Shown here: in pieces, positions 2,744-61,181 of the stretch
How positions within the stretch are numbered: position 1 is the first letter of the stretch
How the letters are laid out: every line of letters starts with the position of its first letter
Assembly (NCBI GenBank): GCA_027315365.1
Contig: DAHUYF010000156.1
Coordinates: 1 to 64,000, forward strand
Direction: 5' to 3'
DNA length: 64,000 nt
Source: Rhodospirillales bacterium
GTDB lineage: Bacteria; Pseudomonadota; Alphaproteobacteria; ATCC43930; CGMCC-115725
Made by a program: the position numbers and the translations under genes
Notes under the pieces: model-generated
Told to the model about the DNA's origin: nothing
Seen by the model: only the letters and a program-made list of their open reading frames with translations
The model's database searches: none

Positions 2744-4285
2744 ATGGCCGAGGCTGCCGCCGGTTCGCCGGCCGGCCCGGATCGGGTCGTGCCCTTGTTC
2801 GCGGCGCTGTTCGCCGCCGCGGCGCTGCCCGTGCTGCTCTGCGACACCTTGCCGCTGTTCGACTATCCCAATCACCTCGCGCGCATGCACGTGCTTGCGG
2901 CTATCGCCGACTCCGAACCGTTGCGGCGCTACTACGAGGTCGCCTGGCGGCCGCTGCCCAATCTGGCGATGGACCTCATCGTGCCGCCGCTCGCGCGGCT
3001 GATGCCGCTCGCCTGGGCCGGCAAGTTCTTCGTGCTGCTCACGTTCTTTCTGCTGGCAGGCGGTGCCGTGACGCTCGGCCGTGTCCTCTTCGGCCGCTGG
3101 TCGGCATGGCCGTGCCTCGCCTTTCTGTTTCTCTACAGCCGGACGCTGCTATGGGGCTTTCTCAATTACCTGTTCGGGCTCGGGCTTGGACTGTTCGCGC
3201 TGGCGCTGTGGATTGCGCTATCGCGCCGCGGCGCCGCATTACGCATGGCGGTCGGCGCGGTGCTGGCGCTGGCGCTGTTCTTCGCCCATCTCCTGGCCTG
3301 CGGTCTCTACGGCGTGCTGGTGGCGGGCCATGCCGCAGGCGTCGCCTGGCGCCGCCGGGCCTCGCCGGCCCAGGCGCTTGGTGAGCTGCTGATCGCCGGA
3401 CTCCCTTTCGTTCCAGCGCTCGCCATCCTCGTGCTGTCGACTCCGGGCAGCGCCGGCGGCGCGGTTGCCTACGGTGCGATGCTGCGCAAGCTGGATCTGC
3501 TGTTCGGCGTCTTCGACAACTACAACCGACCGTTCGACGTCACCTGCTTCGTGCTTGCGGTGCTGGCGCTACTGCTCGCCTTCTGGCGGCGCTGGGTGCG
3601 GCTGGAGCCGTCCATGGCCGCGCCGCTGGGCTTGCTGGCGCTGGTCTATCTCGCCATGCCGTCCCAGCTTGCCACCGCCTCGGGCGCCGATCATCGCATC
3701 CCGGTAATGCTGGGGCTGGTCCTGGTGGCGTCGAGTCGCTGGGTGGCGCCGTCGCGCGGGGAGCGGCTGTTTCTGATCGCCGCGCTGATACTTTTCCTGC
3801 TGCGTCTGGGCGTGGTCGGGGTCCAATGGCAGGCGAGCGACCGGGTCTATGCCGGCCTGCTGCCGGCGCTCGACTCTCTGCCGCAGGGAAGCCGTCTCGC
3901 CGTCGCCTATCCTGCGGACGCGGTCAACTCGCAGCCGACGCCGCTGGTCCATTTTCCCGCCCTCGCGGTCGTCCGTCGCGATGCCTTCGTGCCGACGCTC
4001 TTCGCCTTTCCGACGCAGCAGCCCCTGGCGCTCCGGCCGGGCTGGCGGGCGTTGCGCGATCAGCTGTCGCCCGAGCGGCTGTGGTCGGCCTTCCTCGGCG
4101 GCGGCCCGCCGCTCGATCCCGCGGAGCGCGCCGCGCTCGCCCGCTACGACCATGTGGTCTTCGTCGGACGCACCGCCTTCGTCCCGCCTGCGGCGCCGCT
4201 GCTGCTGCCGCTGTTCGCCGCGCCGCGCTTCGCGCTCTTTGCCGTGGCGCGAGGCTCCCTTGACGCGCCCGGCGGCGCCCGATAG
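2744..4285 (+). CDS. Polytopic membrane protein, glycosyltransferase-C-like, unknown function
   Basis: A 513-residue integral membrane protein with roughly ten to eleven predicted hydrophobic helices spread over residues 15-390 and a soluble C-terminal part of about 120 residues. I chose the ATG at 2744 because it sits behind a strong purine-rich site (GAAGGAGGGGAGG); the frame is open further upstream without such a site. The layout resembles membrane glycosyltransferases of the GT-C type, and an early acidic segment (PLFDYPNHLARMHVL) after the first helix is suggestive of their acidic loop, but I recognise no family with certainty. It is followed after 40 bp by another protein of the same general build, so the two may work together on an envelope glycan. 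Confidence 0.6.
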   Translation: MAEAAAGSPAGPDRVVPLFAALFAAAALPVLLCDTLPLFDYPNHLARMHVLAAIADSEPLRRYYEVAWRPLPNLAMDLIVPPLARLMPLAWAGKFFVLLTFFLLAGGAVTLGRVLFGRWSAWPCLAFLFLYSRTLLWGFLNYLFGLGLGLFALALWIALSRRGAALRMAVGAVLALALFFAHLLACGLYGVLVAGHAAGVAWRRRASPAQALGELLIAGLPFVPALAILVLSTPGSAGGAVAYGAMLRKLDLLFGVFDNYNRPFDVTCFVLAVLALLLAFWRRWVRLEPSMAAPLGLLALVYLAMPSQLATASGADHRIPVMLGLVLVASSRWVAPSRGERLFLIAALILFLLRLGVVGVQWQASDRVYAGLLPALDSLPQGSRLAVAYPADAVNSQPTPLVHFPALAVVRRDAFVPTLFAFPTQQPLALRPGWRALRDQLSPERLWSAFLGGGPPLDPAERAALARYDHVVFVGRTAFVPPAAPLLLPLFAAPRFALFAVARGSLDAPGGAR

Positions 4286-43033: not shown

Positions 43034-43157
43034 CGGCTGTCTCCCATGCCTTGCGCTACATGGTACACCAGCCCCGATCCGCCAGCCATGCGGCCGCCCG
43101 AAAGGAAAAATTAACCAACCCGGCACAAGCTCGCGACATGCAATGCCGGAGTTTTTC

Positions 43158-44069
43158 ATGACGCTTCTCGTCAGCGGTGTGGTCACGCTGTCCAACGGCC
43201 CGGCGCGATGCCAGATCGCCCCCGGCGCGGGCGGCGCGGTTGCCGGCTTCTGGTGGGAGACCGGCGGTCGCCGTCTCGATTGGCTGCGCCCGGCCTCGCC
43301 TGCGGCGGTGGCGCGTGGCGATGCCGGCGAGATGGCGTCGTTTCCGCTGGTGCCCTATGGCAGCCGCATTCGCGACGCGCGTTTCCGGTTTTGCGGCCGC
43401 GAGGTCGTCGAGACGCCGGCCGACGGGCCCCGGCGCCATGCGCTGCACGGCCATGGCTGGCGGCAGCCTTGGGCGGTGACCGACCACGCCGACGACCGGC
43501 TGGTGCTCGAATACGATCACCCCGCCGACGCCTGGCCGTGGCCTTATCGCGCCCGGCAGAGCTTCGCCCTCACGCCGCAGGCGCTGGAGATCACGCTCGA
43601 GATCGAGAACCGGTCGGACGCGCTGATGCCCGCCGGCCTGGGATTTCATCCCTTCTTCCCGCGCACGCCCGAGGCGACGATTGCCGCGCGCACGAGCGGC
43701 GTGTGGCTCACCGACGCCGATCTGCTGCCGCGCGAACATGCCGCCGTGCCGTCGGACTGGGATCTCACCGGTGGCCGCCGTGTCGCCGATCTCGCGCTCG
43801 ACAACGTCTTCACCGGCTGGGCTGGCGAGGCGGTGGTGACCTGGCCCGAGCGCGCGGCGCGGCTCCACCTCGGCGCCACGCAGCCGCTGCTGTCGTTTCT
43901 CGTGCTCTATACGCCGCGCGAACGCGACTTCTTCTGCGTAGAGCCGGAAAGCCACGTCACCGACGCGATCAATCTCGCGCGCGAGGGTGTGGCCGAGACC
44001 GGGCTGCGCGTGCTGGCGCCCGATGCGCGGCGTGCCGCCCGCATGAGCCTGCGGCCGGAGCTCTTCTAG
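43158..44069 (+). CDS. Aldose 1-epimerase family protein
   Basis: A 303-residue galactose-mutarotase-like beta-sandwich enzyme that interconverts sugar anomers. The substrate residues are visible: arginine in YGSRIRDARF, histidines in HALHGHGWRQPW and GFHPFFP, and the catalytic glutamate in FCVEPESHVTDAIN. The ATG at 43158 is preferred over 43143 because GGAG lies six bases before it. It is divergent from ftsH and stands alone; the sugar is unknown. Confidence 0.87.
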   Translation: MTLLVSGVVTLSNGPARCQIAPGAGGAVAGFWWETGGRRLDWLRPASPAAVARGDAGEMASFPLVPYGSRIRDARFRFCGREVVETPADGPRRHALHGHGWRQPWAVTDHADDRLVLEYDHPADAWPWPYRARQSFALTPQALEITLEIENRSDALMPAGLGFHPFFPRTPEATIAARTSGVWLTDADLLPREHAAVPSDWDLTGGRRVADLALDNVFTGWAGEAVVTWPERAARLHLGATQPLLSFLVLYTPRERDFFCVEPESHVTDAINLAREGVAETGLRVLAPDARRAARMSLRPELF

Positions 44070-44130
44070 CGGAGCTGCGGTTCCGGCGGGCGATGCGTGC
44101 ACGCCGCGCAACCCGCCCGGCGGCGTATTT

Positions 44131-44811
44131 TCAGCCGCGCCCCTGCCTCCGGGTCGCGGTCTCCGCCGCGACCGCGAGTGCCAGCCGCAGCGCCCGCTCC
44201 ATCACCGCATGGTCCATCGAGGCGAGGTCGGCGCGCTGATGGATGTCGAGCCGACCGGCGCGCGCCTCGGCGAGCATCTCCGCCACCTGCTCGGGGAGAT
44301 AGGGGAGGTGGATGAAGCCGCAGGGGATATGCCAGCCGCGCCGTTCGACCGCGGCGAGCAGCGTGTAGAGCGCGGCGTTGCAAAGAAAGGCGCCGGCGGT
44401 GGCGGAGAGCCGCACGGGAATGCCGGCGGCGAGCAGTGCCTGCTCGATGGCGCGCAGCGGCAGCGTCGCGGCGAGCGCCGTGGTTCCCGCCGGGGCGATC
44501 GCCGCGTCCTCGAGGCGGGCGCCGGCGTTATCGGCGATCTCGAAATTCGCCAGGTTCAGACCGAAGCGCTCGAGCCGGATCATCGGCTCGCCGGGCCAGA
44601 GTCCGAGCGCGATGACCAGCCGTGGCCGCACCTGGTCGAGCATCGCCTCGAGCCGCGCGCCGAGCCCGGCGAAGGCCACCGGCAGGCTGCGGCCGACGAT
44701 GTCGAAGCCGCCGATGCGCGCGCCGTCGAGCGCCAAAGCCAGCTTTGCCGAGGGGTTCGCCGCGCGGCCGCCATAGGGCTCGAAGCCGGTGATGAGCGCG
44801 GTCTCGGCCAT
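44131..44811 (-). CDS. pcp: Pyroglutamyl-peptidase I (pyrrolidone-carboxylate peptidase)
   Basis: A 226-residue cysteine peptidase (C15) that removes N-terminal pyroglutamate. It begins LITGFEPYGGRAANPSAKLA, and the catalytic triad is E81 (RLERFGLNLANF), C144 (ATAGAFLCNAALY) and H168 (GFIHLPYLPEQ). The start at 44811 is chosen because the family motif begins within the first ten residues. It is convergent with the aldose epimerase and divergent from the YkoP-like gene. Confidence 0.9.
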   Translation of the reverse strand: MAETALITGFEPYGGRAANPSAKLALALDGARIGGFDIVGRSLPVAFAGLGARLEAMLDQVRPRLVIALGLWPGEPMIRLERFGLNLANFEIADNAGARLEDAAIAPAGTTALAATLPLRAIEQALLAAGIPVRLSATAGAFLCNAALYTLLAAVERRGWHIPCGFIHLPYLPEQVAEMLAEARAGRLDIHQRADLASMDHAVMERALRLALAVAAETATRRQGRG

Positions 44812-44954
44812 GCGGAATCCCCGTGAAAGATCGTCCCTCCGGTCATCTTGGCGGGTGAAAACCGCGAGGGTCAACCCGCGCCGCGGGGGGCCGCATTTCC
44901 GCGCCGAGCAACCCCTGGAATGCGCCCAACCAGAAATCACATTTCATGCGGGAA

Positions 44955-44998
44955 CCACGATCGGCCTGCTGCCGATTGTGGATCGTGGATAGTCCACG
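44955..44998. other. Two hairpins in the leader of the YkoP-like gene
   Basis: CCACGATCGGC (44955-44965) pairs with GCCGATTGTGG (44971-44981) over 11 bp with one G-U, loop CTGCT; directly after it CGTGGA-TAG-TCCACG (44984-44998) forms a 6-bp hairpin. They lie 22-65 bp upstream of the GTG at 45020 and could control its expression. Confidence 0.45.
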
Positions 44999-45697: not shown

Positions 45698-46321
45698 ATG
45701 CGCTCGTCCGAGCAGCAAGGATCCGACCTCGTGACCAGCGCCGCCAGCGAATTCGTCGCCTTCCGTATCACCGTCTGCGGCATCGCCGAGCTTGCCAGCC
45801 ACAGCGCGGTCGGCGTCACCCACGTGCTCTCCATCCTCGACCCCGGCTTTCCCGATCCCGAGGCCTTCGGCGCCTTCGGCGAGCATGAACGGCTCGATCT
45901 GCGCTTCCACGACATCACCGAGGAGCGGCCGGCCATGCGGCTGGCGCAGCGCGAGGACGTCGCCGCGCTGCTGGAATTCGGCCGCGACCTCCAGCGCGAG
46001 CCCGATGCGCATCTGCTGGTCCATTGCCATATGGGCATCTCGCGCTCGACCGCGTCGATGGCGCTGATCCTGGCGCAGGCGCGCCCCGACCGGCCGGCGC
46101 TCGATGCGCTCGCCGAGGTGCGGCGCATCCGTGCCCAGATCTGGCCCAATTTGCACCTCATCGAGCTCGGCGACGAGCTGCTCGGCCGCAACGGCGAACT
46201 GGTCGCCGCGGCGGTCGCGCGCTACCGCCACGTCGTCGAGCGCCGGCCCGACATCGGCAAGATGATGGTCGAGATGGGGCGCGGCCGCGAAGTGGCCGCG
46301 GCGACGGCGCCGCCGGGCTGA
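45698..46321 (+). CDS. Tyrosine/dual-specificity phosphatase-like protein
   Basis: A 207-residue protein with the CX5R active-site loop HCHMGISRST (C110, R116) and an upstream aspartate D72 (LRFHDITEE) that could be the general acid. The order of elements fits compact cysteine-based phosphatases of the dual-specificity type found in alphaproteobacteria. The ATG at 45698 is used; a GTG at 45731 with AAGGA upstream would remove eleven residues and fits homologues equally well. It follows the YkoP-like gene and is convergent with the cyclase gene, 3 bp apart. Confidence 0.8.
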   Translation: MRSSEQQGSDLVTSAASEFVAFRITVCGIAELASHSAVGVTHVLSILDPGFPDPEAFGAFGEHERLDLRFHDITEERPAMRLAQREDVAALLEFGRDLQREPDAHLLVHCHMGISRSTASMALILAQARPDRPALDALAEVRRIRAQIWPNLHLIELGDELLGRNGELVAAAVARYRHVVERRPDIGKMMVEMGRGREVAAATAPPG

Positions 46322-46324
46322 TGC

Positions 46325-47101
46325 TCAGCCGCCGATGATCGCCACGGCGCGCGTCCAGCCCGCCGAGGCGCCGCGGATCTTCACTGGAAAGCAGCTCACG
46401 GTGAAACCCTGCGCCGGGAGCGCCTCGAGATTGTGCAGCTTCTCGAGATGGCAGTAGCCGATCTCGCGGCCGGCCTTGTGGCCTTCCCAGATCAGCGCGG
46501 CGTCGCCGCTGGCGCTGTACCTCTCCTGGGTGTGGACGAAGGGCGCGTCCCAGCTCCAGGCGTCGGTGCCGGTGAGCCGCACGCCGCGCTCCAGCAGATA
46601 GAGCGTCGCCTCGCGCCCCATGCCGCAGCCGGCGGCGACGTAGCCGGGCTTGCCGTAGGCCGAGCCGGCGCGGGTGTTGACGACGACGATATCGAGCGGC
46701 TGCAATCGATGACCGATGCGGCCGAGCTCGGCCTCGACCTCCGCGGCGGTGACGACATGGCCGTCCGGCAGGTGGCGGAAGTCGAGCTTGACCCCGGGCT
46801 GCAGGCACCAGTCGAGCGGCACTTCGTCGATGGTGATGGCGCGTTCGCCGCGGTTCATGGTGGAGTGGAAGTGATAGGGCGCGTCGAGATGCGTGCCGTT
46901 ATGGGTCATCAGCCGGATCCATTCGATCGCCCAGCCCTCGCCCTCGGGCAGATCGGTCGCCTCGAGCCCGGGAAAGAATTTCACGATGTCGGCGGCGGTG
47001 TCCTTGTGCGTGAGATAGTCAATCCGCGGCCCATAGCCCGGCGGATCGGAGACCACGTCGTTCTCGAGATGCATGGAGATGTCGATCAACCGGCGCGCCA
47101 T
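46325..47101 (-). CDS. Cyclase family protein (putative metal-dependent hydrolase)
   Basis: A 258-residue protein of the cyclase/kynurenine-formamidase superfamily. The metal motif HxGTHxDxPxH is [15 protein letters not shown] (H67, H71, D73, H77), and the N-terminus reads [20 protein letters not shown]. The subgroup hydrolyses formamides, amides or lactones; the substrate is not fixed by sequence. It follows the radical SAM gene with 76 bp between stop and start. Confidence 0.85.
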
Positions 47102-47177
47102 GTACTGCTCCTCCCGCGGGGTGCGCGCATCATAGCGCCGGCGCCGCCGCGGCAAAATCCTGCCCCGCCGCCGGCGC

Positions 47178-48785
47178 TCAGGCGCGGCGGCGTGTCGCCA
47201 GCGCCGCGGCGCGAGGGCGCGGCGCTCGCGCCTTGGCGGAATAGAACGAGGCATTCTGGCGGCCGGCGGCGGCCTCGCGCGCAAAAGTGACGAGATGATG
47301 CGCGACAAGCGCGACATGGATCACGTCCTCGACCCGCCCTTGTCGCAGCAGCGGCCACGCCATGCGCCAGAAGACGCGGCGGTAGTCGGCGATCACGCCG
47401 ACGCGCAGCAGGATGTTGGCCATGATGCGCAGCCCTTTGCGCAGATTGGCCCAGGAGGCGCGCTGCGGGCTGGCCGGCGGCTTGATGCGGTTGGGATAGG
47501 TGTACTCGACATTGTAGGCGAAGCGGCGATAGAGCGCCTCGGGCGCATAGGCCTCGGCAACGACGCGGCGCCAACCGGCGAGCACGCGGTCATAGGGCAG
47601 CAGGAAGTCGACATTCGATTCGCGCGTCGGCTCGTCGATCAGCCGGCCGGCGGCGGCCAGCCGCTGCCACAGCGGCGTGCGCGGCAGCGCCTGCAACAGG
47701 TTGACGGTAAGCATCGGGATGTTGGAGCGCTCGATGAAGTCGAGGATGCGCTGCGGCGTCTCGTGCGTGTCGCCATCGAGGCCCATGATGATGCCGGAGA
47801 CCACTTCGAGGCCGAAGCCGCCGAGCACGCGCACCGCCTCGATGATCGGCAGATCGTTGTTGTGATCCTTGGCCATAGCATGCAGTGCGTCCGCCTCCGG
47901 CGTCTCGATGCCGCAGAACACGGTGGTGAAGTAGGCCTCGCGCATCAGCGCGAGAAGGTCCGGATATTTGGCGATATTGAGCGTCGCTTCGCAGGCGAAC
48001 TCGACGGGGTAACCGTTGCGCCGCTGCCACTCGACAAGATGCGCCACCAATTCGCGCGCGGCACGGCGATGGGCGATGAAATTGTCGTCGACGAAATAGA
48101 CCGCGCCGGGATTGCCGTGGCGCAGCATGGTGTCGAGCTCGGCGGTGACCTGCGCGGGCGATTTGATGCGCGGCACGCGGCCATAGAGCGCCGGGATGTC
48201 GCAGAACTCGCAGCGATAGGGACAGCCGCTCGAGAACTGCACATTGGCGATGAAATACCGGTCGAGCGCGACGAGGTGATAGGCCGGCGACGGAAATGCG
48301 CCGAGCGGCAGGCGTTCCTGCGTCTCCAGACGCACCGGCGCCGGCGGCCGCGCCGGATCGGCGTCGAGCAGCGCGATCAGCCGGTCGGTGGCATCGCCAA
48401 GCTCGCCAATATGCAGGTAATCGAAATCGCCGTAGGGCGCAGGGTCGCCCGACACCGACGGACCGCCCAGCACCGTGGTCTTGCCCTGCGCATGGGCGCG
48501 GGCGTTGATGTCGAGGATCTTCGCACGCTGCACGTGCATGCCGCTAACCAGGATGGCGTCGGCCCAGCCGATCTCGCGCCGGCTCGCCGGGCGGATATTC
48601 TCGTCGACGAAGCGCACCTCCCAGTCCGCCGGGAGGTAGGCCGCGATGGTGAGCAGGCCCTGCGGCGGCATGAAGGCGCGCGTCGTGCCGAGCAGCGCAT
48701 AGGCGTTCTCGAAGGTACCGAAGGAAGGGCTGTAGGCGGGAAAAACGCAAAGTATCTTCCGTCGGTTGGCGGCGATCGGCGGCAT
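47178..48785 (-). CDS. B12-binding radical SAM protein, HpnP-like (DUF4070)
   Basis: A 535-residue protein with an N-terminal B12-binding Rossmann-like domain ([20 protein letters not shown], then [20 protein letters not shown]), a radical SAM core with the cluster motif C188-x3-C192-x2-C195 ([20 protein letters not shown]), and a DUF4070-like C-terminal region with [20 protein letters not shown]. The whole arrangement closely resembles HpnP, the hopanoid C-2 methylase. Related DUF4070 radical SAM proteins of other function exist and no hopanoid gene is nearby, so HpnP is a hypothesis. The ATG at 48785 is used from homologous starts. Confidence 0.78.
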
Positions 48786-48922
48786 CGCGGCGTCTCTCCC
48801 CGTTCTTGAAGGCACTCGGCTGGTGAACCACCGGGAGCGCGCGCAGGTTCATCGGCGGGAGCGCGCTGTTGCCGGCGAGGCGCGGAATGCTAGGCTCGCG
48901 TCGCCGGGCGGAGGACCGAGAC

Positions 48923-49342
48923 ATGCGTATGGCGCAGCATCACATCACGATCGCCACGCCGGGGCAGGGGCTGCACGAGATCACGCCGGTCGTGACCGGT
49001 TGGGTCGCGGCGCAGGGCATGGCCACAGGTCTCCTCACGCTCTACCTGCGGCACAGCTCGGCCTCGCTGCTGGTGCAGGAGAACGCGGCGTCCGAGGTGC
49101 GCGCCGATCTCGAGGATTTCCTGCGGACGCTCGCGCCCGAGGACCCGCGGCGCTATCGCCACGACGACGAGGGGCCCGACGACATGCCGGGACATATCCG
49201 CGCCGCGCTGCTGCCGACCCAGCTGTCGATTCCGCTCGCCGGAGGGCGGCTGGTGCTCGGCACCTGGCAGGGGCTGTACCTCGTCGAGCACCGCCGCGCG
49301 CCGCATCGGCGAGAGATCGTGCTGCACCTCCAGGGCGAGTAA
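48923..49342 (+). CDS. YjbQ family protein (secondary thiamine-phosphate synthase type)
   Basis: A 139-residue protein of the YjbQ/UPF0047 family. Conserved segments are GLHEITPVVTGWVAAQG, LTLYLRHSSASLLVQENAAS, YRHDDEGPDDMPGHIRAALL and LGTWQGLYLVEHRRAPHRRE, including the histidines thought to bind a ligand. Some members show weak thiamine-phosphate synthase activity; the physiological role is not settled. The ATG at 48923 lies seven bases after GGAGGA. It is convergent with the encapsulin gene, 5 bp apart. Confidence 0.88.
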   Translation: MRMAQHHITIATPGQGLHEITPVVTGWVAAQGMATGLLTLYLRHSSASLLVQENAASEVRADLEDFLRTLAPEDPRRYRHDDEGPDDMPGHIRAALLPTQLSIPLAGGRLVLGTWQGLYLVEHRRAPHRREIVLHLQGE

Positions 49343-49347
49343 GAGCG

Positions 49348-50196
49348 CTAGCGCGCCCGTTGGGGCCGGTCGTCCTTTCGCTCGCTCGCGCCGCCGGCGG
49401 TGCCGATAGTGCAGATCGCCCGCGGCTCGTCGATGCGCAGTACGATGCTTTCGCTGAGATAGAGGTGATAGTGAACGCCGTCCTGGCTGGCATAGCCGGC
49501 GCGCAGGTCCTGCCCGAGGATGAGCTCGCCGAGACGGGGATCGACCAGCACGCCGCCTTCGATCGGCGCCTTGTAGATGCCGCGCGTGCACAGCCGTCGC
49601 AGATGCTCGAGCTGCAGCATGTCGGTGCCGGGATAGAGGCGGAACAGCCCGTTGAACAGCGGCGGCGCCAGCGCCAGCGCGTAGGGGCCGCGATAGCCGG
49701 CCTCGTCGAGACGCGTCACCGCGGCCAGCACGTCGGCCAGCGCGCGCTCGACCGCCGACCAGTCGCCGCCCTCGATATGCTGGCGGCCCTCCTGCGTCAG
49801 CAGCCCCGGCAGATGGAAATCCGGCTGGCCGCGATAGATGAATTCCTCCTCGCGGTCGGCGACCGCTTCGGCCGCGTCCTCGGCCGGCGTCAGGTCGAGC
49901 GGCTGGCCGTTGTCCAGATGCGCGGCGACGCGGCGCACGCTGAGCCGGAAGCTCTTGCGCAGCATCGGCACCGACACGGCGCGCCCCATCACCGCACCTG
50001 CCTCATCGGCCGTCGGCTGGCGGCAGTAATCGTCATTGCCGACCTCGATGGCGGTGAGGCCGGGGCCGAACGGGCCTTCGAGGTCGAGGAAGCGGCGTCC
50101 CGTCAGCCGCTCGCGCGCGGCGTCGATGGCGGCCTCCTCGACCGCCCGCCAGATCGCTTCGGGAAGCGCCGCCGGATTGCGGTTGAGGCTGTCCAT
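49348..50196 (-). CDS. Encapsulin shell protein (linocin/CFP29 family)
   Basis: A 282-residue protein with the HK97-like capsid fold of bacterial encapsulins. Family segments are WRAVEEAAIDAARERLTGRR, FLDLEGPFGPGLTAIEVGND, FRLSVRRVAAHLDNGQPLDL, EEEFIYRGQPDFHLPGLLTQ and LGQDLRAGYASQDGVHYHLY. It should self-assemble into a small icosahedral compartment. The cargo gene, an encapsulated ferritin, ends 10 bp upstream on the same strand, so cargo and shell are co-expressed. AGGAG precedes the ATG. The C-terminus is about 15 residues longer than the fold needs and is charged (ASERKDDRPQRAR). Confidence 0.93.
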   Translation of the reverse strand: MDSLNRNPAALPEAIWRAVEEAAIDAARERLTGRRFLDLEGPFGPGLTAIEVGNDDYCRQPTADEAGAVMGRAVSVPMLRKSFRLSVRRVAAHLDNGQPLDLTPAEDAAEAVADREEEFIYRGQPDFHLPGLLTQEGRQHIEGGDWSAVERALADVLAAVTRLDEAGYRGPYALALAPPLFNGLFRLYPGTDMLQLEHLRRLCTRGIYKAPIEGGVLVDPRLGELILGQDLRAGYASQDGVHYHLYLSESIVLRIDEPRAICTIGTAGGASERKDDRPQRAR

Positions 50197-50206
50197 GGCG
50201 TCGCTC

Positions 50207-50569
50207 CTAGCGGTTCTCGTCGCGCAGCGTGCCTACGGTGAAGCCGTGCGCGCCGGGCTTGCCGTTGCCTTCGGCGTCGCTCTCGATCTCGAGGATCGGC
50301 TTCTCGGTGAACAGATAGGTCTTGAGATGGGTGGCGAAATCCGTATCGCTGCGCCTGATCCATTCCAGCAGCATCGAGGCGTGCTCCATCTCCTCGCGCA
50401 TGTTGTGCAGCAGCAGTCCCTTCAGCGCCTCGTCCTCGGTGTCGTCGGCGCGCTGGCGATACCAGTCGACGGCGTCGAGCTCCTCGATCAGCGAGACCAG
50501 CGCGTGGTGAAGCCGCAGCGCGTGCTTGGACAGGCGCTCGCGCGGCGCGTGCAGGGATTCGCTCGACAT
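50207..50569 (-). CDS. Encapsulated ferritin-like protein (EncFtn)
   Basis: A 120-residue two-helix ferritin-like protein that forms an annular ferroxidase and is packed into encapsulin. Aligned with Rhodospirillum rubrum EncFtn, the ferroxidase residues correspond to E30, E60 and H63 (SLIEELDAVDWYRQ and HNMREEMEHASMLLEW), and W36/Y37 of the entry site are present, with D32 in place of a glutamate. The C-terminal HGFTVGTLRDENR is the encapsulation tag. GGAG stands seven bases before the ATG. It oxidises Fe(II) for storage in the shell encoded just downstream. Confidence 0.94.
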   Translation of the reverse strand: MSSESLHAPRERLSKHALRLHHALVSLIEELDAVDWYRQRADDTEDEALKGLLLHNMREEMEHASMLLEWIRRSDTDFATHLKTYLFTEKPILEIESDAEGNGKPGAHGFTVGTLRDENR

Positions 50570-50676
50570 TCACCGTCTCCGCCGGATGGGACGCGCGGCG
50601 GTAGAACGAGGATCGCTCCGCCGGCGCGCGCCAAGCCAGAACGCCGGGCGCGGCGCGCGGGTTCCGGCAGGGTAGC

Positions 50677-50973
50677 TCAGGGCGGCGGCGGTGGGTTGGT
50701 CCAGACGCGCACCGCCATCAGCTCGCGCAGCGCAACCAACTCGCGGGCGATGGTGACGATCGCGGCGATGAAGCCGGAGAAGATGCCGGCGAGCGCCAGG
50801 CCGATGATGAAGCCGATCACCGTCCACAGCACCTGCTGCGCCAGGCCGGCGGGTGCGGCGAAATAGCTGCCGGCGAAATCGCCGCGATAGCCCTCCACCG
50901 TTGCCGAGATGATGATGAGCAGCGCCAGCAGCTTGTTGATGATGTCGAGGATGCCGATCAGCAGCCGGTTCAT
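50677..50973 (-). CDS. Small two-helix membrane protein beside the encapsulin locus
   Basis: A 98-residue protein with two hydrophobic segments: residues 3-25 (LLIGILDIINKLLALLIIIS) and 45-75 (AQQVLWTVIGFIIGLALAGI and FSGFIAAIVTIA). It ends in WTNPPPPP. I do not recognise a family. It lies 107 bp upstream of the ferritin gene on the same strand, so it may be transcribed with it, but this is unproved. A GGGAG site precedes the ATG. Confidence 0.65.
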   Translation of the reverse strand: MNRLLIGILDIINKLLALLIIISATVEGYRGDFAGSYFAAPAGLAQQVLWTVIGFIIGLALAGIFSGFIAAIVTIARELVALRELMAVRVWTNPPPPP

Positions 50974-51036
50974 CGGCGATCTCCCTGCGCAGTCCGCCCG
51001 CCGTCGACGCACCCGCGCGGGTACGCTCCCGCGGGT

Positions 51037-51372
51037 TCAGCGCCGCGCATGCAGCAGGTAGGCGAGGGCGTAGCCGATGGCGCCGGCGACGAGCAGCGCC
51101 AGCAGCGGCCGCTCCTCGACCCGCTCGGCGAGATCCTCGGCTCCCCGCCGTCCGCTGCGATAGGCGTGGTCGGCCAATCCTCGCGCGCTGGCGCCGGCCT
51201 TTTGCGCGACGTCCCAGGCCCCATTGCGTGCCTCGGCCAGCGCGCTCGCCGCTTCTCCGGCCATCGACGCCGCCTGCTGCGCCAGTTCCCGCGCGCGCTC
51301 GGTCATCTCCTCGGCGCCCGTCGACGCCCGCTTGACCAGCCGGTTCGCCTGATCCGCGATGTTTTTCGCCAT
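51037..51372 (-). CDS. YqjD/ElaB (DUF883)-like membrane-anchored protein
   Basis: A 111-residue protein with an alanine- and glutamate-rich helical N-terminus (RELAQQAASMAGEAASALAE, residues 28-47) and one C-terminal membrane helix after a conserved RPLLALLVAGAIGYALAYLL. This architecture matches the DUF883/YqjD family, tail-anchored proteins that in E. coli bind ribosomes in stationary phase. GAAGGAG precedes the ATG. It is 63 bp upstream of the two-helix membrane protein gene. Confidence 0.72.
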   Translation of the reverse strand: MAKNIADQANRLVKRASTGAEEMTERARELAQQAASMAGEAASALAEARNGAWDVAQKAGASARGLADHAYRSGRRGAEDLAERVEERPLLALLVAGAIGYALAYLLHARR

Positions 51373-51515
51373 GCCCGCTCCTTCCGCCCGTGGTGAGCCC
51401 GTTACCAGGGCAAACATCCGGCCGCGGCGGTCATCCCAGTGCGGCGGGGAGGAAACCCGACGGAAGCGGGTCGATCGCCACGGCTGCCGTAGAGGTTGGC
51501 GAGGCAGCCTGCGGT

Positions 51516-52046
51516 TTAGCGCAGCGTCGCCGCGGCGACGGCGAGCGGCTTGTCCAGGCGATGCTCCTGGAGCGGGTGGATCTCTTCGCTGACCGGGATC
51601 TCGCGGAAGTTGGCGGCGCCGAGCAGACCGTCGATGCGCCCCTCGCTTTCCGCCAGCGGCAGCAGGATGCTGCGATAGACGATCGGCTGCCCCTCATGGA
51701 TGCCGACCCCGCCGGTGCTGATCGGCACGCCTTTGGCGAGGACGCGCGCGGCGTACGAAGTGGCGACGTAGAGCAGCGTGCTCTCCTGGCATTCCGACAG
51801 GCTTTGCCGGTCGAGCGTCGGCCAGCTGGGATCGCGCAGGTTCTCGCCGACCGCGGCAAAGCGCGAGCATTCGAGTTTGGGGTCGACGTCGATCAGCAGG
51901 CAATTAGCCCAATCTTGGCCGAAAAACTGCGGATCGATCTGCGCCCGGCGGGGCAGCGCGCCGCCGCGGCACAGGCTGCGCCAGCGCGCCAGGACGCGCA
52001 ATACCAGGCGCTGTTCGCGGATCTGCAGATCCGTCATCGGTTCCAT
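51516..52046 (-). CDS. PAS-domain protein (PF07310 type)
   Basis: A 176-residue protein of the short PAS_5 family common in Rhodospirillales. Segments LRVLARWRSLCRGGALPRRA, WANCLLIDVDPKLECSRFAA and SILLPLAESEGRIDGLLGAA follow the family pattern. It has no output domain, so it is probably a partner protein in signalling; the ligand is unknown. The ATG at 52046 is used; one at 52037 is possible. It lies 143 bp before the YqjD-like gene on the same strand. Confidence 0.72.
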   Translation of the reverse strand: MEPMTDLQIREQRLVLRVLARWRSLCRGGALPRRAQIDPQFFGQDWANCLLIDVDPKLECSRFAAVGENLRDPSWPTLDRQSLSECQESTLLYVATSYAARVLAKGVPISTGGVGIHEGQPIVYRSILLPLAESEGRIDGLLGAANFREIPVSEEIHPLQEHRLDKPLAVAAATLR

Positions 52047-52093: not shown

Positions 52094-52420
52094 TTAAGGA
52101 AGGATTAGAGAGGGGGCCCCTCGGCGCCGCCCGCCGGAACCCGGCACGATCACCGGCACCGCCAGCGGCGGCGTGAAATAGGTCACCGGTGGCGCCGTCG
52201 AGGCGAGCGGCCCCGGCGTCAGCCCCGGCGGCGCATAGCCCGGCGGCACGAACGGCGCGAGCGGGCCCGCCACCACCCCGCCCGTCACCGGCTGCGGCGG
52301 CAGCAGCAGGATGCCGACGCGGGGACCGGCCAGGGCCGCCGGTATCGTTCCCGCCGCCAGCGCCAAAGCCAGCACCAGCAAAACCACCGCCATCCTCCTC
52401 CGGTCGATCGCGTGACGCAT
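52094..52420 (-). CDS. Small secreted proline-rich protein, unknown function
   Basis: A 108-residue protein with a signal peptide (MAVVLLVLALALAAGTIPAA, cleavage near ALA-GP) and a mature part rich in P, G and V (PGYAPPGLTPGPLASTAPPV). GGGAGG precedes the ATG. There is no recognisable domain and no cysteine. It is 47 bp upstream of the PAS gene, same strand, and divergent from the DUF2846-like lipoprotein gene. Confidence 0.55.
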   Translation of the reverse strand: MRHAIDRRRMAVVLLVLALALAAGTIPAALAGPRVGILLLPPQPVTGGVVAGPLAPFVPPGYAPPGLTPGPLASTAPPVTYFTPPLAVPVIVPGSGGRRRGAPSLILP

Positions 52421-52576: not shown

Positions 52577-53026
52577 ATGAGGCGCGGCCTGCTCTCGATC
52601 ATCGTGTCGGCGGTGCTTGTGCTGGCCGCCTGCGCCGACGGTCCGTATCCCGGGGCGGAGCCGGCGCTGGCGCCCGACAAGGCGCGGCTTTACGTCTATC
52701 GCGCGCTCAATCCCAACGATTCGCTGCTGTGGACGACGGTGTCGCTCGATCGCCGGCCGATCGGCGCCTTGGGGCCCGGCACCGTCTTCTACCGCGATCT
52801 TCCGCCCGGCATGTACGAGATCGAGGTGCAAAGCGACCAGCTCTATCCCGGCCAGTTCAAGACCGTCCGCCTCGTCGCCGGCAGCCGCACCTATGCCGAG
52901 ATCCAGCAGCAGCCTTTCTGGGGCACTCCCAGTTACGAATGGCAGGGCTCGACCTTCCTCGTCGCCATCGTCAACCCGGTCGTCGGCGCGCGCCAGATCC
53001 AGCGCCTCCGCTTGACCGCGGGTTGA
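52577..53026 (+). CDS. DUF2846-like lipoprotein
   Basis: A 149-residue lipoprotein (signal peptide ending VLAACADG). The mature part follows the DUF2846 pattern: ARLYVYRALNPNDSLLWTTV, PIGALGPGTVFYRDLPPGMY and EIEVQSDQLYPGQFKTVRLV, a compact beta-sandwich found in envelope proteins. The role is unknown. GGGGGACCGG precedes the ATG. It stands alone, convergent with the HemD-like gene. Confidence 0.75.
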   Translation: MRRGLLSIIVSAVLVLAACADGPYPGAEPALAPDKARLYVYRALNPNDSLLWTTVSLDRRPIGALGPGTVFYRDLPPGMYEIEVQSDQLYPGQFKTVRLVAGSRTYAEIQQQPFWGTPSYEWQGSTFLVAIVNPVVGARQIQRLRLTAG

Positions 53027-60747: not shown

Positions 60748-61181
60748 GCAGCAACCTCGCAGGATGGCGGCGCCGTCCGCGACGACATCGCGACCGGGGG
60801 TCGCGTGCGTAACCATGTCTTGGACATGCGCAGAAAAGCGCCTCAGCGCGACGGGCCGTCCTTGACCCATCCGATCGACGAAGCGGGCGCCGCCAGAAGC
60901 TGAAACGCCCGAGGACGGAACCGCGCCGCCATTGTCGCGGTTCCCGCGCGCCCGGCCGCCAGAAGCGCGGTCGACCGCCGCGACGCTTTCTTGCAAGCGG
61001 CGGGCCAAAGTCGCGGACGCGAGCAAACGCTGCAAGCGCCGCCGGTTTCCGCCGATTCTCCGTGCCCGCCGCCGCGGCGCCGCTTGCGCTCGATGCTCAA
61101 AGCTCGGGCAAGCCGAGATCAAAAATAGTGCAGCGCAGCATCGGCCGGCCAGCGGAGGGCCCGCCTCCCATCCGCGCGTCG
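60748..61181 (-). promoter_or_regulatory. 434-bp GC-rich leader with several hairpins before the nitrate operon
   Basis: No convincing gene is present. Stem-loops visible (plus-strand positions): 60789-60805 (CGCGACC/GGTCGCG), 60814-60828 (CATGTC/GACATG), 60917-60944 (GGAACCGCG/CGCGGTTCC, 10-nt loop), 60975-61003 (CCGCCGC/GCGGCGG) and 61103-61117 (CTCGG/CCGAG). A short A/T-rich block (AAAAATAG, 61120-61127) near the nasS end may contain the promoter. NasT proteins are ANTAR RNA-binding antiterminators acting on such leaders, and nasT is encoded just upstream, so this is a likely target. I could not identify the paired ANTAR hexaloops with confidence. Confidence 0.5.

What the first reader, a model, noticed from the sequence alone, without database searches (positions are those of the whole stretch)
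49348..52046. Encapsulin-EncFtn iron compartment flanked by uncharacterised membrane and PAS proteins
The EncFtn gene (E30, E60, H63 conserved, C-terminal targeting tag) and the shell gene are 10 bp apart, a known iron-storage module. Upstream on the same strand lie a two-helix membrane protein, a YqjD-like tail-anchored protein and a PAS protein, with gaps of 107, 63 and 143 bp. These may localise, load or regulate the compartment, but nothing is known of them in this setting.
Basis: partly seen in the sequence, partly recalled or inferred. Interest (0 to 1): 0.5.

Follow-up and report, generated by a model that had tools for sequence, protein, structure and literature searches.

The report
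Iron-storing protein cage, stress-type promoter
A bacterium carries a two-gene kit for a protein cage that stores iron; its shell belongs to a branch known from larger cages, it has what looks like its own stress-response promoter, and the genes beside it are probably bystanders.

Summary
In detail: EncFtn (50207-50569) and a family-1 encapsulin shell (49348-50196) lie 10 bp apart below a membrane gene, a tail-anchored gene and a PAS gene. That these neighbours serve the compartment is not supported: relatives do not keep them beside EncFtn (one tail-anchored homologue lies 1.3 kb away), and a same-genus contig has YjbQ and PAS 33 bp apart with no EncFtn block between. The core pair is more interesting. 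(1) The shell groups with EncA/IMEF (T=3/T=4) shells, not with the other EncFtn shells of the same bacterial family, yet its E-loop is as short as theirs. (2) Tag follows shell: T before [IV]G in 26 of 26 type-A cargos, G/R/N in 21 of 21 type-B. (3) Untagged close relatives (56 loci) have no shell beside them, and 0 of 50 such genomes show a family-1 shell. (4) EcfG-type promoter matches precede 18 of 47 encapsulated EncFtn genes, including this one, but 1 of 56 untagged ones (0.16-0.31 expected per group). I read it as a stress-induced iron store, a new shell-cargo combination of a known kind; cage size is open.

The parts
49348..50196 (-). Family-1 encapsulin shell protein (282 aa), EncA/IMEF lineage, short E-loop
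   Evidence: PF04454 E 3.3e-59, NF041155 E 2.9e-72; PDB ranking; tree; AF2 model pLDDT 81.4 and fold search
50207..50569 (-). EncFtn, encapsulated-ferritin family, ferroxidase residues E30/E60/H63, C-terminal tag FTVGTL
   Evidence: PF22277 E 2.5e-34; PDB 7oe2 E 2.1e-34, 5n5f E 3.6e-32; alignment; tag counts
50640..50665 (-). EcfG-type promoter match GGAAC-N17-CGTT, 70 bases before the EncFtn start, in the TM2-EncFtn gap
   Evidence: Only exact match in 64 kb; 0.37 expected, and 32 of 100 shuffles have at least one, so alone it is not significant; support comes from enrichment at spacing 16/17 before encapsulated EncFtn genes of relatives; consensus in PMC6599016
50677..50973 (-). Two-helix membrane protein (helices judged from the sequence), no known family; inside the block absent from same-genus G001, not conserved beside EncFtn
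51037..51372 (-). Ala-rich protein with C-terminal hydrophobic segment (YqjD-like by appearance only); inside the same block
51516..52046 (-). PAS_5 protein; bystander, kept in same-genus genomes in which EncFtn was not found
   Evidence: PF07310, 22.7 bits, cut-off 22; 87% and 84% orthologues in G001 and G003
48869..49342 (+). YjbQ/UPF0047 gene, convergent with the shell gene; other border of the block
   Evidence: TIGR00149 E 1.4e-36; adjacent to PAS in G001

Best explanation
EncFtn and the shell are a stand-alone two-gene iron-storage compartment, transcribed from their own EcfG-type (general stress response) promoter. EncFtn oxidises Fe(II) at its dimer-interface ferroxidase centre, its xT[IV]GxL tag docks it inside the shell, and the oxidised iron is stored in the cage. 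The shell comes from the EncA/IMEF lineage, known from T=3 and T=4 cages, rather than from the lineage used by other EncFtn systems in the same bacterial family; tag and shell type go together. Shown by sequence: families, residues, tag, lineage, neighbour turnover, promoter-motif enrichment. Inferred: iron storage, loading, stress induction. Open: cage size.
For: Families and residues. Shell scores: 139.7 bits for 6nj8 and 132.7 for EncA, against 87.9 for the best T=1-side shell (K. pneumoniae), 79.7 for T. maritima and 78.3 for H. ochraceum. A type-B shell of the same order does the reverse: 305.7 for 9ry4, 58.0 for EncA. Tree: the branch between 26 type-A shells plus 4 EncA/IMEF-side references and 22 type-B shells plus 3 references of the other side has 100/100 support. 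Tags: T before [IV]G in 26 of 26 type-A, G/R/N in 21 of 21 type-B, like EncB/EncC/IMEF (TVGSL) and R. rubrum/H. ochraceum (LGIGSL) in PMC11202242 Table 2 (passage). Type-A shells found by searching with the shell: 5 of 5 (window, L126-L128, L182) have EncFtn just upstream; in the other type-A loci the search was for EncFtn, so adjacency there is partly built in. EcfG-type site (YGTT form) in 7 of 26 type-A (the window's one of them), 11 of 21 type-B, 1 of 56 untagged loci; of spacings 8-27 only 16 and 17 give hits, apart from one hit at 10 and one at 20. Empty site in G001.
Against: No measured transcription, iron loading or cage. The window's own promoter match is not significant alone (32 of 100 shuffles have one). 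19 of 26 type-A loci lack the motif, and in three of the seven it is more than 100 bases from the start codon. The motif was first seen by eye in type-A upstream sequences, so the type-A count is not blind; type-B and untagged loci had not been looked at. Some untagged loci are from outside Alphaproteobacteria, where EcfG is not expected (PMC3892343 abstract). In this genome NepR scored below cut-off (23.2 of 25.7 bits, inside an ORF beside another ECF sigma factor) and no PhyR with a receiver domain was seen; only ECF sigma factors with a PhyR_sigma2-like region. E-loop length speaks against T=3/T=4. EncFtn is below the NCBIfam cut-off of TIGR04535 (112.8 of 125). TM2 and the tail-anchored gene came or went within the same block, so a role for them is not excluded.
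Confidence: 0.7

Rival explanations
1. One reading: the membrane protein, tail-anchored protein and PAS protein form a functional unit with the compartment, placing it at the membrane, loading it or regulating it.
For: Same strand, short gaps. The first two lie inside the 2.2-kb difference from G001 together with the pair. All 3 genomes with TM2 hold type-A EncFtn, though with 23 of 43 genomes holding EncFtn this would happen by chance about one time in seven. One tail-anchored homologue lies 1.28 kb from EncFtn in G031.
Against: None of the three found in the flanks of 23 other EncFtn loci. In the two other TM2 genomes it is on another contig than EncFtn. PAS is kept in G001 and G003, where EncFtn was not found. 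Promoter match between TM2 and EncFtn.
Confidence: 0.12
2. The compartment is a T=1 cage like other EncFtn encapsulins: the EncA-lineage shell has a short E-loop and A-domain loop and builds 60-mers.
For: E-loop segment 43 residues in 24 of 26 type-A shells, 42-44 in 22 type-B, 50-51 in 4 EncA/IMEF-side references; A-domain segment 28 in 26 of 26 against 33 in those references and 31 in type B. EncA itself forms T=1 and T=3 without cargo (PMC11202242 passage); PDB titles 7s21, 8v4n.
Against: One reference of the T=1 side (9ry4) has 48 residues there, so length does not map cleanly to T number. The papers speak of E-loop arrangement, not length. Lineage. Part of the loop is below pLDDT 50 in the model.
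Confidence: 0.45
3. The GGAAC-N16/17-YGTT match in the window is chance or is read by another ECF sigma factor, and the pair is controlled by iron or peroxide regulators.
For: 32 of 100 shuffles of the window have a match; NepR and PhyR not confirmed in this genome; 19 of 26 type-A loci lack the motif.
Against: 18 of 47 encapsulated loci against 1 of 56 untagged; background from the same loci predicts 0.16 for the 26, 0.31 for 22 type-B rows and 0.22 for the 56; hits almost only at spacings 16 and 17; 14 of 36 clusters at 85% identity against 1 of 44.
Confidence: 0.25

Closest known systems
EncFtn-encapsulin of Rhodospirillum rubrum and Haliangium ochraceum
   Same: Same cargo family and ferroxidase residues; tagged EncFtn with a family-1 shell
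   Different: T=1 for both in PMC11202242 Table 1 (R. rubrum from negative stain; passage); tag LGIGSL rather than FTVGTL; window shell 27-28% identical to the H. ochraceum shell
Myxococcus xanthus EncA with EncB/EncC
   Same: Shell lineage and xTVGSL tag form; ferritin-like cargo in an EncA-type shell
   Different: Cargo here is the EncFtn subfamily (PF22277): only E 3.8e-8 to EncC and below the EncB_fam cut-off, 68 of 90 bits; E-loop segment about 8 residues shorter
IMEF encapsulin of Quasibacillus thermotolerans (T=4)
   Same: Closest solved shell by sequence (6nj8)
   Different: Its cargo is IMEF, a four-helix ferritin-like protein of another class (PMC11202242); longer E-loop and A-domain segments
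s-FLP (Nitrosomonas europaea NE0167, 3k6c)
   Same: The untagged close relatives of the window EncFtn fit its description: short, no tag
   Different: The window protein has a longer tail with a tag, and a shell partner

Membership tests
Family-1 encapsulin | Linocin_M18 HK97-fold shell protein | tested here: met
   PF04454 E 3.3e-59 and NF041155 over cut-off; fold search
[quoted passage not shown]
   10-bp gap, FTVGTL tail; 26 of 26 type-A cargos carry the motif
Family-1 encapsulin | Self-assembles into an icosahedral cage that takes up the cargo | not testable with these tools
   needs expression and electron microscopy
EncFtn | PF22277 domain with ferroxidase Glu/Glu/His | tested here: met
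   E 2.5e-34; E30, E60, H63 invariant in 13 of 13; they fall on E32, E62, H65 of R. rubrum by the two-residue offset (residue numbers from PMC11202242 passage)
EncFtn | NCBIfam TIGR04535 cut-off | tested here: not met
   112.8 bits against 125; the Pfam cut-off is met, so membership rests on PF22277
EncA/IMEF shell lineage | Groups with EncA and IMEF shells rather than with T=1 shells | tested here: met
   100/100, 55 rows; type-A shells form their own group (94/94) on that side; bootstrap not fully settled (0.974) and several long branches
EncA/IMEF shell lineage | E-loop segment of 50-51 residues as in the four references | tested here: not met
   43 residues
EncA/IMEF shell lineage | T=3 or T=4 cage | not testable with these tools
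   needs electron microscopy
EcfG regulon | GGAAC-N16/17-(C/T)GTT before the operon | tested here: met
   50640-50665 (-), weak alone; consensus GGAAC-N17-20-GTT in PMC6599016 passage
EcfG regulon | EcfG, NepR and PhyR in the genome | tested here: inconclusive
   ECF sigma factors with PhyR_sigma2-like region; NepR below cut-off; no PhyR seen
YqjD/ElaB (DUF883) | match to the family model | tested here: not met
   no such model among matches to E 0.1 in Pfam or NCBIfam

The most novel reading that the evidence does not exclude
A distinct lineage of stress-induced iron compartments in which EncFtn left its T=1 shell lineage and was matched, tag included, to an EncA-lineage shell whose shortened E-loop changed the cage size; close untagged EncFtn relatives work with no shell at all. 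One protein family would then show three packaging states among close relatives, making shell size, tag recognition and loss of encapsulation directly testable.
Probability: 0.45. Interest if true: 0.65.

Novelty: new variant of a known kind. Interest (0 to 1): 0.48.

Why it matters
It separates cargo family from shell lineage in iron encapsulins. It gives a natural test of what sets cage size (lineage against E-loop). It suggests that alphaproteobacterial encapsulated ferritins are part of the general stress response. It also bears on a question left open in PMC11202242 (passage): in 50 genomes with an untagged EncFtn no family-1 shell was found, so such proteins most likely work unencapsulated.

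Tried and rejected
Plasmid context: EncFtn in 7 plasmid records, all under 60% identity; nothing bearing on the window. Sigma-70 promoters: 0 found, 0.3 expected; the one terminator-like site, 52510-52494 (0.9 expected), is outside the block. Mobile-element ends: no repeat pair marks the block borders among the repeats listed (20 direct families, 25 of 29 inverted pairs shown); insertion in the window or deletion in G001 was not resolved. Family-2 shell in genomes of untagged EncFtn: 0 of 50 with NF041162, but the control rang nowhere, so this shows nothing. NepR hit in the own genome judged unreliable. T number by sequence: rejected as undecidable; one T=1-side reference, 9ry4, has a 48-residue E-loop segment. 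T numbers of 9i8e, 9fy6, 9ry4, 9i8d and 9fn9 come from no call; their sides are recalled or inferred from the tree. Fold comparison is only mild support: Foldseek puts EncA-side chains in ranks 1-27, but by VIA-align the T=1-side shells reach Z 24.9 while wild-type 6nj8 has 23.0 and 4pt2 22.5. Direction of change between tagged and untagged EncFtn: starred branches force at least 3 changes of either label, but 97 columns cannot order them. There H. ochraceum EncFtn and one type-B row (L134) fall nearer the type-A and untagged rows, so cargo and shell trees do not match perfectly. One type-A shell (L046) lacks most of the E-loop segment and looks like a broken or misassembled gene. One type-A row (L062) is mostly N upstream. 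One type-B tag match (RGVGGI) may be a misparse.

Rows left out before counts. L001-L024 except L020 and L024, L025-L035 (same contigs as named loci), L125, L128, L130; the same duplicates, plus L102 and L109 (under 1 kb downstream), L022, L023; 50 of the 56 untagged loci; left out L036, L054, L082, L105, L110, L115; completeness of those genomes is not told. On checking I lowered two odds: best explanation 0.75 to 0.7 (the window's own motif match is not significant alone), T=1 cage 0.5 to 0.45 (9ry4), and raised the chance-promoter rival 0.2 to 0.25.
Full report
The window lies in an assembly of 4.97 Mb with one EncFtn gene; that it is alphaproteobacterial is inferred from the titles of relatives. 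The shell is a family-1 encapsulin and the cargo is EncFtn; the three ferroxidase residues are invariant in 13 of 13 aligned sequences.

Neighbours. EncFtn occurs in 24 of 61 genomes searched and in 23 of 43 genomes of the order, the window's own counted in both. In the 23 loci other than the window, with flanks of up to 1.5 kb (shorter at contig ends), none of the three upstream proteins was found. In longer stretches G031 has a tail-anchored homologue (37%) 1.28 kb upstream of EncFtn on the opposite strand, and L101, an untagged locus, has a weak PAS match (25%) about 0.9 kb away. In the order, TM2 is in 3 of 43 genomes, PAS in 11, the tail-anchored protein in 19. EncFtn was not found in the three same-genus genomes (78-82% complete). 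In G001 the YjbQ gene ends at L176:3106 and the convergent PAS gene ends at 3140, 33 bp on; in the window 2,173 bp holding shell, EncFtn, TM2 and the tail-anchored gene lie between the same two genes. In G003 the PAS gene is followed by unrelated sequence without YjbQ. PAS is therefore a bystander; the other two travel inside the block here but are not kept beside EncFtn elsewhere. In 80 named loci the only recurrent partner besides the shell was an ABC ATPase cluster in 9.

Shell lineage. Sequence search of the PDB ranks Q. thermotolerans (6nj8), D. quercicolus (9i8e) and EncA-type shells first for the window shell and for the 23-row profile (organism names). A type-B shell from the same order ranks the other side first and EncA far below. 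The 55-row tree separates type A plus four EncA/IMEF-side references from type B plus three others with 100/100 support; the bootstrap had not fully settled and some branches are long. The AlphaFold2 model (mean pLDDT 81.4) gives mild support: Foldseek ranks 1-27 are EncA-side chains, but VIA-align Z-scores overlap (27.8 for an engineered chain, 8rvj, whose aligned sequence is that of 6nj8; 27.4 for 9i8e and EncA 8vjo; 24.9 and below for T=1-side shells; 23.0 for 6nj8 itself). Against a T=3/T=4 cage, the E-loop segment is 43 residues in 24 of 26 type-A shells (one has 42, one broken gene 6), as in type B (42-44), while the four EncA/IMEF-side references have 50-51 and the three others 42, 42 and 48. 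PMC6668986 and PMC11202242 (passages) tie T number to E-loop arrangement; using its length is my extrapolation. EncA forms T=1 and T=3 particles without cargo (PMC11202242), and pore mutants give tetrahedral and T=4 cages (PDB titles). I leave cage size open.

Tags. In 26 of 26 type-A cargos the residue before [IV]G is T; in 21 of 21 type-B cargos it is G, R or N (pattern set after seeing the tails). Table 2 of PMC11202242 (passage) lists TVGSL forms for EncB, EncC and IMEF and LGIGSL for R. rubrum and H. ochraceum, so tag and shell type go together. Type-A shells found by searching with the shell itself have EncFtn just upstream in 5 of 5 cases: the window, L126-L128 and L182, the last in another class.

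Untagged relatives. Of the 80 best named EncFtn loci (of 305 found) 23 have a type-A shell beside them and 57 have no shell in the stretch held; 37 of the 57 have at least 5 kb on both sides. Fifty-six untagged loci were analysed and none has the tag motif. In 50 of their genomes no family-1 shell was found, while the control rang in 3 of 14 known genomes. PMC11202242 (passage) says it is unclear whether such s-FLPs are encapsulated; these counts argue that they are not, at least not in a family-1 shell.

Promoter. GGAAC-N17-CGTT at 50640-50665 (-) is the only exact match in the window; 0.37 are expected and 32 of 100 shuffles have at least one. With NGTT there are 5 matches, 1.06 expected, and no shuffle reaches 5. 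I first saw the motif by eye in type-A upstream sequences, then tested all groups. In up to 200 bases upstream of EncFtn, YGTT forms occur in 7 of 26 type-A, 11 of 21 type-B and 1 of 56 untagged loci (NGTT: 7, 13 and 2); background from the same loci predicts 0.16 of 26, 0.31 of 22 and 0.22 of 56; of spacings 8-27, hits fall at 16 and 17, with one at 10 and one at 20. After clustering at 85% identity: 5 of 19, 9 of 17, 1 of 44. Rows remain related and some untagged loci are not from Alphaproteobacteria, so the Fisher values (1e-6 for encapsulated against untagged, 0.001 for type A against untagged) are only a guide. PMC6599016 (passages) gives the EcfG consensus GGAAC-N17-20-GTT, counting the C as part of N. 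No paper in the held library contains both 'EcfG' and 'encapsulin'. In this genome four places match PhyR_sigma2 over cut-off; the two best are ECF sigma factors; NepR and PhyR were not confirmed.

Verdict. An EncFtn iron store, a known kind of system, in a shell-cargo combination for which I saw no description in the papers searched. The neighbour hypothesis fails its own test on gene order. Reading of papers: PMC6668986, PMC8346489, PMC11202242 and PMC6599016, passages only; PMC3892343, start of abstract in a listing; the others search listings only.

Noticed in passing
57 of the 80 loci L045-L124, and L036: Close EncFtn relatives without targeting tag or shell are common in Alphaproteobacteria and also appear in records titled Planctomycetota, Marinimicrobia, Deltaproteobacteria and Lysobacterales.
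   Followed up: yes
L102 and L105, EncFtn C-terminus: Two untagged EncFtn proteins end in a repeated DRGSPIK-like motif, possibly another docking sequence.
   Followed up: no
window 43036-44971 and 46313-48888: Two further window segments (the second includes the B12/radical SAM gene) have no counterpart in the otherwise collinear same-genus contig L176.
   Followed up: no
G000:C118:77950, C36:9893, C41:110697: The PAS protein has three paralogues in the same genome, one 56% identical with an in-frame stop in the match.
   Followed up: no
window 617, 40149, 60917-60944: Other looser EcfG-type motif matches; the pair at 60917-60944 matches on both strands.
   Followed up: no
L140 and L142 (one genome, G099): This genome has two type-B shells, one beside EncFtn and one without EncFtn nearby that groups with the Arthrobacter and Cfp29 shells.
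   Followed up: partly
L132 and L138: Two type-B loci have a weak match (30% and 28%) to the window's DUF2846-like protein (52577-53026) just upstream of EncFtn on the opposite strand.
   Followed up: no
L177:1-490: In same-genus G003 the stretch beyond the PAS gene is unrelated to the window and holds a short frame that looks like the start of an IS110-type transposase (recalled, not searched).
   Followed up: no
window 52094-52420 (-): Proline-rich, secreted-looking protein of 108 aa with no Pfam or NCBIfam match to E 0.1.
   Followed up: no
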